A DNA stretch of 61,957 nucleotides from an uncultured Prevotellaceae bacterium (lineage in GTDB: Bacteria > Bacteroidota > Bacteroidia > Bacteroidales > Bacteroidaceae), in assembly GCA_900313235.1 (NCBI GenBank), contig OMQN01000007.1, forward strand, positions 1 to 61,957. Direction: 5' to 3'. Under the pieces are notes generated by a model. The model was not told where the DNA came from and searched no databases. It worked only from the letters and a program-made list of their open reading frames with translations. Below, piece after piece: positions 13,810 to 60,782 of this stretch; position 1 is the stretch's first letter, and every line of letters begins with the position of its first letter. Position numbers and translations under genes: made by a program.

Positions 13810-13998
13810 TACTTATCAAAAAAAATGGGACTCCGCTGAGCCCCAAACCTTTGTTAACCTTAAATCTAATACTATGAAAAACACGATGCAAAGATACTAC
13901 ATCTTTTATAATATGCAAGAAAACGAGGAAAGAAAATGGTGTAGCTGCTACACTTTCTTGACATAAATCAAGCAAATTGAAAAATATTTATTCAAAAA
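13810..13998. other. Non-coding stretch between dcuB and greA promoters
   Basis: The 425-bp divergent gap between dcuB and greA is AT-rich. Short open frames on both strands here look random. The only other structure I see is a small perfect hairpin GTGTAG-CTG-CTACAC (13939-13953), followed by TTTCTT; it could end a small transcript but no matching gene is visible. Confidence 0.5.
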
Positions 13999-57027: not shown

Positions 57028-57046
57028 AACAAATTTCCACCTTTTT

Positions 57047-57078
57047 CTTGGCTGTTTCGGAAATAATTTCTATCTTTG
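57047..57078 (+). promoter_or_regulatory. Promoter of the MNT-HEPN remnant locus
   Basis: CTTG at 57047-57050, 20 bp, TATCTTTG at 57071-57078. The ~50-bp region around it is about 85% similar to the promoter at 57568-57620. Confidence 0.75.
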
Positions 57079-57097
57079 CAGCAGATACAAAGAAATT

Positions 57098-57526: not shown

Positions 57527-57583
57527 CAATAAGTATATATTCATACGCATCACGGTGGCAATCGAAAGATTTTCACCTTTTTC

Positions 57584-57614
57584 TTTGCTGTTTCAAAAAT
57601 AATTCCTATCTTTG
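57584..57614 (+). promoter_or_regulatory. Promoter of the structured RNA
   Basis: TTTG at 57584-57587, 19 bp, TATCTTTG at 57607-57614, ideal consensus. Transcription would start near 57621-57623. Confidence 0.85.
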
Positions 57615-57621
57615 CAGTGTT

Positions 57622-57942
57622 CTCATACCGAAGCCTTGCTTGAGTGCGGTGCTGACGAGGGTGGGAATTTATATATAGGAAAAGCGTTATCTGACGCTTT
57701 GTTCTTGACTCTTCGGAATCTGGCAGTTCCCAACTAATCGTCGAGATGCAAAGCAACAATGACGCTCATGGGTATGTAATATCCGTATCAGCATAGTTGT
57801 CAGCCATCATTGGCTTACTACTAATGCTGTCGTATATATACATACGGCGTGGGCTTCGGCGTTGCTCGTTCTGACGATTAGGGCGATGCCAGAGCCTCGG
57901 AGAGTGGGACGAGTAACAGGTAGGATCCCACGCTCTTTTTGT
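57622..57942 (+). ncRNA. Structured RNA of about 320 nt (unknown class; stand-alone RNA or long leader)
   Basis: No plausible protein is coded here. Predicted helices: 57662-57669/57725-57732 (8 bp) enclosing a perfect 7-bp hairpin 57681-57687/57694-57700 and a TTCG-loop hairpin 57707-57711/57716-57720; AGCCA-TCAT-TGGCT at 57802-57815; 57829-57835/57842-57848; a long stem 57852-57855/57893-57896 plus 57858-57867/57881-57890. The loop of that stem (57868-57880) plus one base is complementary over 9 nt (GACGATTAG, 57873-57881) to CTAATCGTC at 57734-57742, a likely pseudoknot. It is preceded by an ideal promoter and ended by a terminator. It does not show the signatures of RNase P, tmRNA or SRP RNA. 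It lies 67 bp before an InlB-type repeat protein gene. Confidence 0.7.
57900..57940 (+). terminator. Intrinsic terminator ending the structured RNA
   Basis: GAG-A-GTGGGA (57900-57909) pairs with TCCCAC-G-CTC (57926-57935), one A-G mismatch, followed by TTTTT (57936-57940). Confidence 0.8.
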
Positions 57943-58008
57943 ATATAAGTAAAGCTTACTACGAACGTTCTGTTCCGGGATTCGCAGATGTATAAAGATC
58001 ATTTGCTA

Positions 58009-58851
58009 ATGAAACACTTAAAACTATTAACTGTGGCGTTTTTCTCTTTGCTATTGGGGACAATACCACTAATGGCACAGGAAGACGGCACAAAATGTGT
58101 AATGATCGAGACGTCGCAAGGAGAGACACTAGAGTATTATATTTCCTCTCATCCTCGACTAACGCAAAACAATGACAAGGTAACTCTAATATCAGATGAA
58201 GAGACACTTGAGTTCAGCACGGTTGGCATTAAGAAGGTTTATACCTCCATTGCCACCATCAAGGTTGTATATACAGTAGATGGTGAAGTTTACAAGACAT
58301 ACTATCACCACGCTGGCGTAAAAATCAAGACAGAGCCAGCCCCGGAAAAAGAAGGCTATTCGTTCTCTGGATGGAACAATGAGCCAACGGTAATGCCCGA
58401 TCATGACATCACTATTGCAGGAACCTTCAGCATCAACAAGTACAAACTCGTATACCAAGTGGATGGTACTGATTACAAGAGTATTGATGTTGAGTATGGT
58501 GCTACTATTACACCAGAAGCGGAGCCTACAAAGGAAGGCTACACCTTCTCTGGTTGGAGTGAAATCCCTGAAACTATGCCAGCTCACGATGTAACTGTTA
58601 CTGGTACGTTTACGATTAATTCTGGTATTGGTGGTGTATACACATATTTTGATTTCGTAAATACAGGTAGCGAGATTCATATTAATGGTTTGCAGCCATA
58701 TGAAGTAGTAACCATTTATAGTGTATCTGGAAGTAAGATTATTACAAAACAAGCATCTAAGGATGGTAAACTGACAATCTCAACATCTTTGCTCACACAG
58801 AGTGTGTATATTATCAAAACAAACAGTAGAACAATTAAATATACAAAATAA
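58009..58851 (+). CDS. Secreted InlB B-repeat (Listeria-Bacteroides repeat) protein
   Basis: 280 residues from ATG 58009: signal peptide (M-K-H-L-K-L-L-T-V-A-F-F-S-L-L-L-G-T-I-P...A-M-A-Q type end at 'LMAQ'), an N-terminal domain, then two B-repeats (about 75-205) each with the hallmark P-x-K-E-G-Y-x-F-S-G-W and M-P-x-H-D-x-T-x-x-G-T-F. The C-terminus (I-Y-S-V-S-G-S-K-I-I...S-V-Y-I-I-K-T-N) resembles type A T9SS sorting domains, suggesting surface delivery. Function unknown; such repeats act as structural spacers or adhesion modules. Its stop overlaps the next start (TAATG). Upstream is the structured RNA, possibly part of its 5' leader. Confidence 0.85.
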   Translation: MKHLKLLTVAFFSLLLGTIPLMAQEDGTKCVMIETSQGETLEYYISSHPRLTQNNDKVTLISDEETLEFSTVGIKKVYTSIATIKVVYTVDGEVYKTYYHHAGVKIKTEPAPEKEGYSFSGWNNEPTVMPDHDITIAGTFSINKYKLVYQVDGTDYKSIDVEYGATITPEAEPTKEGYTFSGWSEIPETMPAHDVTVTGTFTINSGIGGVYTYFDFVNTGSEIHINGLQPYEVVTIYSVSGSKIITKQASKDGKLTISTSLLTQSVYIIKTNSRTIKYTK

Positions 58852-59903
58852 TGAAAAGAACAATAATATCAATAGCTATTGCTGCATTGGCAACAAGCCT
58901 TTTTGCCCAAACAGTTAACGTACACTTCAAGAATGGACAGACCATCGTATTTCCTTCTGGGAATGTAGAATTCGTAGATTTTTCAGAGAAAGCCCCTGAC
59001 CCCACAGTGTCTGCAGGTGCAGTGGTTGACCTTGGATTATCTGTGTACTGGTGTTCATGCAACGTTGGAGCTGAAGCTCCAGAGGAGTATGGTGATTATT
59101 ATGCTTGGGGTGAGACAAAACCGAAGAGTAGTTATTTACAGAAGAACTATGCTTTCTATGATGATAACACCAAAACATATACTAATATTGGCAACGATAT
59201 TAGTGGTACAGAGTATGATGCTGCTACTGCTAATCTTGGTAACGATTGGAGGATGCCTACAAAGGCAGAAATCAAAGAACTTAGAGACAACTGTACATGG
59301 GAGTGGGTTCAGATTAAAAGCATCAATGGATATAAGGTAACTGGATCTAACGGAAATTCAATATTTATACCTGCAGCAGGATTCTATCTATCTTCTTCGA
59401 AAATGTATGTCGGAGAAAAAGATGGTAATGATTTTTGGAGTGCAACATCTACATCAACAGAGTATGCTCATACATGTAATAATCTTTATGATGGTTCAGG
59501 TCGTCCCAAATATTATGGTCTTTGTATCCGCCCCGTCACTTCTAACCCCAACGCTGAGGGAGGTCCTGTTGACCACTCTAGTGACTACCTTGTAACGGAT
59601 AAAATCTCTGCATCGATTATAAGTGCTTCTGTTAGTAAAATCAATGGGGTAATACGGTCTGGCAGTTCTTTTGGTGTAAAATTCAGTAACGCAAGTGACG
59701 AGGCTGTGACACTGATTGGTATAGAAGTTCACGATAGCGGAAAGGCTGCGGGCAGCAATCTGCTTTCAGAAGAGGTAGAAGTCGCTGCTGGTGAATCTAA
59801 GAGCTATACTGTCACACTTGGCTCAAACATGACAACCCCTGTGTTCTGTTTCACCTACCGTTACAATAAAAAGAAATACACAGTTGAAGCAACCTATTCC
59901 TAA
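58851..59903 (+). CDS. Secreted protein with Fib_succ_major-like domain
   Basis: 350 residues. Signal peptide M-K-R-T-I-I-S-I-A-I-A-A-L-A-T-S-L-F-A^Q. The middle (about 58-225) matches the Fibrobacter succinogenes major paralogous domain type: V-D-L-G-L-S-V-Y-W-C-S-C-N-V-G-A, Y-Y-A-W-G-E-T-K, G-N-D-W-R-M-P-T-K-A-E, F-I-P-A-A-G-F, F-W-S-A-T-S and L-C-I-R-P-V. The C-terminal ~110 residues form an Ig-like beta domain. Presumably a surface or secreted binding protein; role unknown. Part of a three-gene set. Confidence 0.83.
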   Translation: MKRTIISIAIAALATSLFAQTVNVHFKNGQTIVFPSGNVEFVDFSEKAPDPTVSAGAVVDLGLSVYWCSCNVGAEAPEEYGDYYAWGETKPKSSYLQKNYAFYDDNTKTYTNIGNDISGTEYDAATANLGNDWRMPTKAEIKELRDNCTWEWVQIKSINGYKVTGSNGNSIFIPAAGFYLSSSKMYVGEKDGNDFWSATSTSTEYAHTCNNLYDGSGRPKYYGLCIRPVTSNPNAEGGPVDHSSDYLVTDKISASIISASVSKINGVIRSGSSFGVKFSNASDEAVTLIGIEVHDSGKAAGSNLLSEEVEVAAGESKSYTVTLGSNMTTPVFCFTYRYNKKKYTVEATYS

Positions 59904-59915
59904 CTTTTTTAATAA

Positions 59916-60782
59916 ATGATTATGAATAAGAAGAATCTATTTTCATTGTTGCCATTAGTAGTGATGGTTATGTTAACTATCTCCTTATTCTCTTGTGGCG
60001 GTGACGATGACAATTCCCCTAATGGTGGCGGCTCGTATGACTTAGTAGATGGAGTTCATGTCAACCCCCAAAAACTCTTGGCTTTGGACGTTTATAAAGG
60101 GGAAAATGCAAAGAGCAAAATCCACTTTGATATGTCCTATGATGCCAAGGGACGACTGACTGATGTCATAGCGAGTGTTTATAGGACGCTCAGCGATGGC
60201 AATACGCAGACGGATAAGGCAAAAATATTGAGTATTGACTATGATTTGAGATTTATCGAATACTATCATAAAGAAAAATATAGCTATAACTCAACAACTC
60301 ACGGATATGATGTAACACCTGTGTATGAGCGTGCTTTCTTTAATTTGAACAGCAATGGCTACATTGCTACACTTGATAATTGCGAGCTATCGTATAACAA
60401 TGACGGCTATCTCGTTGGGACGAAAGACAGCAAGACGATGTGGACTTTTGCCTACGGAGAAAACGATGTAATCAAATACATGGTAGAGAGATTAAAGACT
60501 GGCAATATTGACATTTACTACACTCACTATGGTGCGAAAAATGGAGATATGTATTTCTCAGTTAATAATCCTGATAAGTTTTCAGAATGGGATTCATATC
60601 CTACGATTTCCGACTGTCGTACTGCCTCAGTCCTAATACTCTATCAAGCAGGTCTGTTTGGAAGAATAAGCCAACAATGCATAAACCTGGCTGGTTCTTC
60701 TAATAAGAATGCAATAATTGAACAAATTAGTGACAAGGATGGTAGTAATTTGATTATCCGTTGCTCGTTCGTGTTCAAATAA
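59916..60782 (+). CDS. Hypothetical lipoprotein (YD-like repeat lipoprotein)
   Basis: 288 residues with a lipoprotein signal ending L-F-S-C-G-G followed by D-D-D, the acidic residues after Cys being a surface-export signal type in Bacteroidota lipoproteins. ATG at 59916 or at 59922. The mature part has short strands of the pattern S-Y-D-A-K-G-R-L-T and S-Y-N-N-D-G-Y-L-V, like the DUF4595-type lipoproteins of Bacteroidales. No enzymatic motif seen. Ends the three-gene set; a strong hairpin follows 36 bp later. Confidence 0.78.
   Translation: MIMNKKNLFSLLPLVVMVMLTISLFSCGGDDDNSPNGGGSYDLVDGVHVNPQKLLALDVYKGENAKSKIHFDMSYDAKGRLTDVIASVYRTLSDGNTQTDKAKILSIDYDLRFIEYYHKEKYSYNSTTHGYDVTPVYERAFFNLNSNGYIATLDNCELSYNNDGYLVGTKDSKTMWTFAYGENDVIKYMVERLKTGNIDIYYTHYGAKNGDMYFSVNNPDKFSEWDSYPTISDCRTASVLILYQAGLFGRISQQCINLAGSSNKNAIIEQISDKDGSNLIIRCSFVFK

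What the first reader, a model, noticed from the sequence alone, without database searches (positions are those of the whole stretch)
57584..57942. A promoter-to-terminator structured RNA with a predicted pseudoknot and no recognised class
Between the HEPN remnant and a B-repeat surface protein lies ~320 nt with an ideal promoter (57584-57614), seven helices including a TTCG tetraloop hairpin and a 14-bp two-part stem, a 9-nt perfect long-range complement (57734-57742 with 57873-57881, the loop of that stem), and an intrinsic terminator (57900-57940). The design suggests a folded stand-alone RNA or a long attenuating leader controlling the 58.0-60.8 kb surface genes. I could not match it to RNase P, tmRNA, SRP or a riboswitch I know.
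Basis: partly seen in the sequence, partly recalled or inferred. Interest (0 to 1): 0.8.

Follow-up and report, generated by a model that had tools for sequence, protein, structure and literature searches.

The report
Shape-shifting leader RNA in gut Bacteroidales
The sequence encodes one copy of a widespread RNA, apparently undescribed, that sits in front of many unrelated genes in gut bacteria, can fold into competing 'stop' and 'go' shapes, and carries two fast-changing, self-matching code words, so it looks like a new kind of genetic on/off switch.

Summary
The ~320-nt RNA (57621-57940) belongs to an RNA family without a match in Rfam 15. A 3'-domain model finds it in 280 of 398 sampled genomes of the genus and 87 of 393 of the order, almost none outside.

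In 153 non-redundant copies three long-range helices covary strongly: for PK1 and PK2 the copy's own partner beats at least 95% of partners swapped in from other copies in 96% and 95% of copies.

The next ORF is on the same strand in 139 of 149 scorable copies. First genes are diverse: 83 homology groups among 128.

The conserved hub strand 57848-57867 has three mutually exclusive conserved partners: upstream (P5/P6), local (H1) and downstream (Pb/P_A, directly before a U-run), as in a transcription attenuator. The terminator arm also pairs with a site before the start codon.

Code sites PK1/PK2 differ at 322 of 705 sites in 30 close pairs; the apical hairpin at 316 of 855, the rest at 356 of 5411. 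No expression data were available; regulation, signal and any trans action are inferred.

The parts
57584..57614 (+). promoter: TTTG 57584-57587 and TATCTTTG 57607-57614
   Evidence: sequence; TAnnTTTG upstream in 133 of 152 copies vs 9 of 147 controls; Bacteroidetes consensus recalled
57621..57940 (+). structured leader RNA (start inferred from promoter spacing, end = U-run)
   Evidence: sense strand shown by 1484 G.U vs 274 A.C cells in 12 helices
57682..57699 (+). hp1 hairpin AAGCGU/ACGCUU
   Evidence: 97% canonical over 153 copies
57697..57753 (+). early 5' hairpin P2/P3 whose loop carries the 5' strands of PK1, PK4, PK2
   Evidence: 89% and 88% canonical (71.3% together on alignment A6); in the MFE of 95-96% of 153 transcripts cut at 57845
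57708..57716 (+). PK1 5' strand, hypervariable code (partner 57897-57905)
57897..57905 (+). PK1 3' strand
57719..57724 (+). PK4 5' strand UCUGGC (partner 57888-57893)
   Evidence: 99% canonical, 157 double-change cells
57888..57893 (+). PK4 3' strand GCCAGA
57734..57742 (+).
   Evidence: own partner beats at least 95% of swapped partners in 95% of 153 copies; only 65% canonical column by column, because indels misalign it
57873..57881 (+). PK2 3' strand
57753..57778 (+). 5' strands of P5/P6/P7, antiterminator (partners within 57839-57865)
   Evidence: 99/96/88% canonical
57839..57845 (+). P7 3' strand UACAUAC (partner 57772-57778)
57848..57867 (+). hub strand CGUGGGCUUCGGCGUUGCUC with three conserved alternative partners
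   Evidence: 0-1% different in close pairs
57852..57896 (+). local hairpin H1 (57852-57867 with 57881-57896, fixed C.A mismatch)
   Evidence: RNAalifold of 40 copies; 89% canonical in 153, 67 double changes, 51 of them in one pair, 57858:57890
57847..57933 (+). terminator hairpin: P_A 57847-57853/57927-57933 and Pb 57861-57871/57907-57917
   Evidence: 99% and 97% canonical; covariation above shuffled and slid controls
57904..57931 (+). short alternative terminator stem T, GUGGGA/UCCCAC
   Evidence: 93% canonical, 55 double-change cells
57934..57940 (+). U-rich run of the terminator
   Evidence: at least 6 T of 10 in 151 of 153 copies
57976..57984 (+). PK3 site (GGGAUU and neighbours) pairing with terminator arm 57921-57930; in other copies in a hairpin loop
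   Evidence: window: -11.7 kcal/mol, 2 of 152 swapped sites as good; family: native -10.6 vs swapped -8.15; closing stem -5.1 vs -2.1, but in the window a 4-bp stem that is not the local MFE
58009..58851 (+). first downstream gene, List_Bact_rpt surface protein (mechanical ORF starts at 57988)
   Evidence: Pfam PF09479 E 5e-15
58851..59903 (+). second gene, weak Lcl_C match below its cut-off
59916..60782 (+). third gene, lipoprotein-like by eye, no Pfam match

Best explanation
A new family of cis-acting leader RNAs that controls transcription into whatever operon lies downstream by attenuation. Transcription starts at about 57621. The 5' hairpin P2/P3 folds first. When the hub strand 57848-57867 appears it pairs upstream (P5/P6, beside P7). 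When 57873-57905 appears it pairs with the P3 loop (PK2, PK4, PK1), giving a rod in which the terminator's 5' half is locked away and polymerase reads on (ON). If PK pairing is prevented, P2/P3 stays and the hub pairs downstream (Pb and P_A), forming a strong hairpin directly before the U-run, and transcription stops near 57940 (OFF). In read-through mRNA the freed terminator arm pairs with a site before the start codon (PK3), which could fix the ON fold or tune translation. Shown: the conserved, mutually exclusive pairings and the leader position. Predicted by energy folding only: the two states and their order. Inferred: termination, regulation and the signal.
For: Next ORF on the same strand in 139 of 149 scorable copies, median 56 nt after the model end (window 57954), upstream ORF in either direction 80 vs 60. 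Alternative helices that share one strand are each conserved in 153 copies: P6 96% vs P_A 99%, P5 99% vs Pb 97%, H1 89%. On a separate alignment of 40 copies the ON set has 247 double-change cells vs 97 shuffled, the OFF set 43 vs 13.6, both above all slid controls. A tree-simulated null puts column pairs of PK1, PK4 and PK2 at E<=0.05. MFE folds of 153 growing transcripts go from P2/P3 to PK with P5/P6/P7. Forbidding pairing of 57873-57903 flips them to P2 93%, P3 95%, Pb 98%, P_A 82%, P5 3%, P6 10%; two same-length control masks leave Pb/P_A at 1-3%. Promoter 133 of 152, U-run 151 of 153.
Against: No transcription data were available; termination and read-through are not shown. In nested folding the ON rod wins by about 20 kcal/mol (-121.8 vs -101.6 with 31 nt barred), so OFF needs a kinetic cause or a bound factor that I cannot name. 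Masking the 5' loop gave only 56% Pb and 52% P_A, and masking the P5/P6 5' strands only 26% and 24%; masking PK1b, PK2b or PK4b alone gave Pb 9%, 24% and 43%. Only PK1, PK4 and PK2 reach E<=0.05 in the tree-based test, and 11 of its 24 pairs are under 70% canonical: indirect pairs or misaligned PK2 columns. PK3 lies after the terminator, so it cannot stop termination that has already happened. Ten of 149 copies have the next ORF on the opposite strand. Copies studied are the best-scoring matches, not a random sample.
Confidence: 0.68

Rival explanations
1. A stand-alone ~320-nt regulatory RNA that acts in trans; the downstream gene is merely a neighbour or one of its targets.
For: Own promoter and U-run; strong conserved fold; the PK3 site in the adjacent mRNA looks like a target site.
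Against: Same-strand adjacency in 139 of 149 with a short gap and locus-matched PK3 point to the adjacent gene; terminator and antiterminator share strands.
Confidence: 0.15
2. A processive-antitermination element of the put/EAR type (recalled): the folded RNA loads onto RNA polymerase so that it ignores terminators, including its own, along an operon.
For: Diverse downstream genes, three of 123 first genes being NusG-like; rod-like ON fold.
Against: No dominant gene class; strands shared with a terminator are what plain attenuation needs. No protein partner was tested.
Confidence: 0.1
3. A ligand-binding riboswitch of a new class responding to a general signal (would overlap with the attenuator reading).
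For: Conserved loop residues around AAUCUGGCAGUU and the hp1 loop; many unrelated target genes, as for signalling-molecule riboswitches (recalled).
Against: No aptamer-like conserved core apart from the switching strands was identified; no gene association hints at a ligand.
Confidence: 0.2
4. A DNA-level mobile repeat (MITE-like) whose palindromes only look like RNA structure.
For: Similar copies in unrelated contexts: of 39 pairs at least 80% identical, 6 share upstream and 13 downstream homology.
Against: 1484 G.U versus 274 A.C cells, so selection acts on one strand as RNA; promoter and orientation conserved; no phage record and two plasmid records match the 331-nt query.
Confidence: 0.03

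Closest known systems
Transcription attenuators and riboswitch expression platforms (general kind)
   Same: 5' leader, mutually exclusive terminator and antiterminator, U-run, same-strand gene
   Different: Hub strand with three conserved partners, hypervariable long-range codes, a pairing to the 5' UTR beyond the terminator, and use by 83 gene groups among 128
T-box leaders (RF00230, number recalled)
   Same: Large attenuating leader with late terminator/antiterminator choice
   Different: No Rfam T-box match; the GUGGGA arm is not invariant
Antisense-RNA attenuation in plasmid copy control such as pT181 and ColE1 RNAI/RNAII (recalled)
   Same: Fast-changing loop sequences that stay complementary; attenuation or loop pairing decides the outcome
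   Different: Both code strands are in one transcript; antisense transcripts and trans action were not tested
put/EAR antitermination RNAs and UpxY leaders (recalled)
   Same: Leader RNA in front of operons; 3 of 123 first genes are NusG-like
   Different: No Rfam match; explicit terminator competition; sequences of UpxY leaders were not compared
HMP2_4205 and HMP2_1881 of Fremin and Bhatt 2021 (PMC8040213, passages read)
   Same: Bacteroidetes candidate structured RNAs of 132 and 108 bp; HMP2_4205 is described as palindromic and a predicted terminator
   Different: Described near TPR and radical SAM genes; the sequences are not in the passages I saw and supplements could not be read, so partial overlap with the 3' domain is possible but untested

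Membership tests
Any Rfam 15 family | covariance-model score at or above gathering threshold | tested here: not met
   No hit on the RNA in the window, none at E<=10 except a minus-strand snoRNA at E 1.1, none on the RNA in 19 further loci
Transcription attenuator leader (kind) | same-strand position just 5' of a gene | tested here: met
   139 of 149 scorable, median 56 nt
Transcription attenuator leader (kind) | terminator and antiterminator that share strands, both conserved | tested here: met
Transcription attenuator leader (kind) | regulated read-through in vivo | not testable with these tools
   no transcript data held
T-box riboswitch | match to the Rfam T-box model | tested here: not met
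Ligand-binding riboswitch | specific ligand | not testable with these tools
   none known
RNA guide of a mobile element (omega RNA, bridge RNA, retron ncRNA) | adjacent nuclease, recombinase or reverse transcriptase gene | tested here: inconclusive
   None among the 25 commonest Pfam families shown for first genes (of 73 families) or second genes (of 79); the rarer families were not shown
UpxY/LoaP-type antitermination leader | dependence on a NusG paralogue | not tested
   NusG-like first gene in 3 of 123

The most novel reading that the evidence does not exclude
The two hypervariable code helices are private addresses under diversifying selection. The terminated leader RNA, which exposes both code strands in loops, pairs in trans with the nascent leader of its own locus and flips it to the terminator, giving locus-specific feedback. 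Related and incoming copies must change code to avoid cross-regulation, a chromosomal analogue of plasmid incompatibility, used as an interchangeable switch module by many unrelated surface, defence and signalling operons of Bacteroidales.
Probability: 0.2. Interest if true: 0.95.

Novelty: new variant of a known kind. Interest (0 to 1): 0.82.

Why it matters
It would be a large regulatory RNA family, spread over an order and absent from Rfam 15, found in 280 of 398 sampled genomes of the window's genus and placed before surface LRR proteins, abortive-infection genes, kinases and NusG-like genes. It offers a natural case in which bases with several alternative partners are frozen while single-partner helices race, which makes multi-state RNA folding readable from evolution. 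The rapid but compensated code change raises a testable question: what selects private self-complementary codes in leader RNAs?

Tried and rejected
Known RNA classes: Rfam at gathering and at E<=10 and tRNA/tmRNA gave nothing on the RNA. Shine-Dalgarno reading of the GGGAG site: disfavoured, because it changes with the terminator arm and SD sequences are generally absent in this phylum (PMC3155529, start of abstract). Conserved short ORF AUGACGCUCAUGGGUAUGUAA: not kept in other copies (read by eye). T-box: the arm resembles GUGGNAC but is not invariant. MITE: disfavoured by strand asymmetry. First idea that PK1/PK4/PK2 are pseudoknots only: their order is nested, so a rod is equally allowed. 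Whole-RNA replacement by a paralogue as the cause of code change: disfavoured where the rest of the RNA and the apical hairpin stay similar (for example L016/L023).

Results against the reading: 3 of 30 close pairs show no faster codes (L013/L014, L205/L213, L199/L212), and the apical hairpin is also fast (316 of 855). Of the nine pairs, two (L105/L110 3/22, L183/L035 4/24) change little in the codes; only L052/L066 and L105/L110 match over more than 1 kb on both flanks, and they disagree. PK2 code sites may be inflated by misalignment; PK1 alone gives 168 of 357 and PK2 154 of 348. PK3 beats 95% of swaps in only 24% of single copies, its support being the mean shift, and in the window its hairpin is not the local MFE. 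RNAalifold prefers a third fold, PK1+H1. P1 (83%) and the CCUAUAUAUAGG hairpin (62%) are weaker. The own-genome match on C167 (E 8.6e-6) and the one match outside the order (G1094, E 7.5e-7) showed nothing in my motif search. Genome tallies count matches on both strands (self-complementary 3' domain), score at most 8 candidates per genome in most scans, and use rough E-values, so copies per genome are not reliable. The tree null is home-made (20 simulations).

Rows dropped: L017 (contig end) was not used after and L122 (short) not aligned; 159 copies became 153 at 90% identity; the first-gene Pfam scan used 123 of 128 (size cap), the second-gene scan 121 of 122; A4 used 78 of 102 candidate rows, A6 40 of 60; one identical pair was skipped. 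Copies were the best-scoring matches listed; weaker and unlisted matches were not studied. Genes are mechanical ORFs of at least 60 aa.

Literature: searches listed no paper that by title or abstract start describes this element; PMC8040213 was seen as outline with abstract and passages, PMC8632094 by a term search without hits, the others as listings only.

Full report
What was checked. It folds much better than shuffled sequence (z -7.3) and matches no Rfam family. Similar RNAs occur in other genomes: by DNA similarity in 132 of 299 genomes of the genus (E<=0.01), by a 3'-domain covariance model in 280 of 398 of the genus (E<=0.001) and 87 of 393 of the order, in 53 of 206 genera (E<=0.01). 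A second model gave 9 of 395 in the class sample (E<=1e-5): eight of the own order, the window's genome included, and one weak match outside (G1094); and 1 of 198 in the phylum sample, the own genome. No phage record and two plasmid records matched the window's RNA; 6 IMG/VR contigs carry the pattern. The own genome has a second copy on contig C123 (E 1.4e-15); by eye its PK1, PK4, PK2, Pb and PK3 strands match each other, and a 146-aa ORF and a BspA-type LRR gene follow.

It is a leader. In 153 non-redundant copies the next ORF of at least 60 aa is on the same strand in 139, opposite in 10, unscorable in 4; the median distance from the end of the model match is 56 nt, while the upstream ORF has no clear preference (80 same, 60 opposite). 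A TAnnTTTG box lies upstream in 133 of 152 (9 of 147 in controls) and a U-rich run follows in 151 of 153. The first downstream genes fall into 83 homology groups of 128. Among 123 scanned, the commonest Pfam families are BspA LRR_5 (11), AbiH (7), LRR_8 (6), CarboxypepD_reg and DUF2971 (4 each), then kinases, PEGA, MBOAT, glycosyltransferases, NusG and others (3 each), 73 families in all. Second genes are again led by LRR_5, 15 of 121. RNA copies at least 75% identical share a homologous first gene in only 16 of 163 pairs, so the RNA is a module reused in front of unrelated operons.

The helices. Exchanging strands between copies is the cleanest test: PK1 native -11.4 against -2.8 kcal/mol swapped, native better than at least 95% of 60 swapped partners in 96% of 153 copies, with 123 and 118 distinct strand sequences; PK2 -11.4 against -3.7, 95%; PK4 -11.2 against -6.7, 16%, its strands being less varied; eleven other helices 8-21% with smaller but consistent mean shifts. 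A G-test with APC against tree-simulated null alignments gives 24 column pairs at E<=0.05, 13 of them at least 70% canonical, all within or beside PK1, PK4 and PK2. Selection is on the sense RNA: 1484 G.U against 274 A.C cells.

A switch. Canonical pairing over 153 copies is 99% for P5 and 96% for P6, and also 97% for Pb and 99% for P_A, although P5/Pb and P6/P_A use the same bases. A third local partner, H1, is 89% canonical and was proposed by RNAalifold without guidance. On a separate alignment of 40 copies both state sets beat shuffled and slid controls. The hub strand, which must suit three partners, is highly conserved, whereas PK1 and PK2 are hypervariable; I read this pattern as the mark of alternative folds (inference). 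Energy folding of growing transcripts in 153 copies forms P2/P3 first and replaces it by PK1/PK4/PK2 with P5-P7 once 57906 is reached. Barring the 3' PK strand flips the fold to P2/P3 with Pb (98%) and P_A (82%); two control masks do not; barring the 5' loop gives 56% and 52%, barring the P5/P6 5' strands 26% and 24%. These folds ignore kissing interactions.

Beyond the terminator. The arm 57921-57930 pairs with a site a median of 42-43 nt after it: native -10.6 against -8.15 kcal/mol swapped, while five control segments show no native advantage. In the window the site is 57976-57984, -11.7 kcal/mol, with 2 of 152 swapped sites as good. Over 151 copies the site is closed by a stem of -5.1 kcal/mol against -2.1 at control positions; in the window that stem is short and not the local MFE. 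It could hold the read-through mRNA in the ON fold or act on translation (inference).

Racing codes. In 30 disjoint pairs of copies whose other sites differ by at most 10%, code sites differ at 322 of 705 (PK1 168 of 357, PK2 154 of 348), the apical hairpin at 316 of 855 and the rest at 356 of 5411; codes are faster than the rest in 27 of 30. PK1 pairs that changed kept pairing with both sides changed 69 times, with one side 15 times, and lost it 8 times. L016 and L023 are identical at 184 of 184 other sites, differ at 2 of 45 apical sites, yet at 11 of 23 code sites. L052/L066 have flanks 93.1% and 94.9% identical over more than 1 kb each but differ at 14 of 23 code sites; L007/L008 share 88.8% identical downstream DNA (not the upstream side) and differ at 11 of 24; L105/L110, also matched on both flanks, differ at only 3 of 22. 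Either selection for new codes or a mutational process that copies one arm onto the other could do this; selection is favoured by cases like L052/L066 but not proven.

Verdict. Best reading: a new family of attenuating leader RNAs, confidence about 0.68, within a known kind of mechanism but with unusual multi-state wiring and code evolution. The signal is unknown. Prior partial detection in the candidate list of PMC8040213 cannot be excluded (passages read; supplements not readable here).

Noticed in passing
window 13815-13884, minus strand: Match to RF04319 BTncRNA_FopS, a known family of paralogous Bacteroidetes sRNAs (79.5 bits).
   Followed up: no
window 57033-57081 versus 57569-57617: The promoter region of the upstream nucleotidyltransferase gene is 90% identical to the RNA's promoter region, and shorter similar stretches occur on four other contigs.
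   Followed up: no
   Followed up: partly
L010, L012, L013, L354: By eye, a recurring operon shape after the RNA: an AbiH-like or a small ORF of about 90-146 aa, then a secreted protein of BspA LRR type.
   Followed up: no
L111 and L135, downstream of the RNA: Small cysteine-rich peptide ORFs with a similar leader, possibly RiPP precursors (by eye).
   Followed up: no
L136 and L137 (NZ_CP072250.1, NZ_CP096966.1): The RNA's 3' domain matches unannotated stretches on 95-kb and 93-kb plasmids of Phocaeicola dorei and P. vulgatus, about 60 nt before a hypothetical gene.
   Followed up: partly
L337-L342: Six IMG/VR contigs carry the 3'-domain pattern; whether these are true viruses was not examined.
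   Followed up: no
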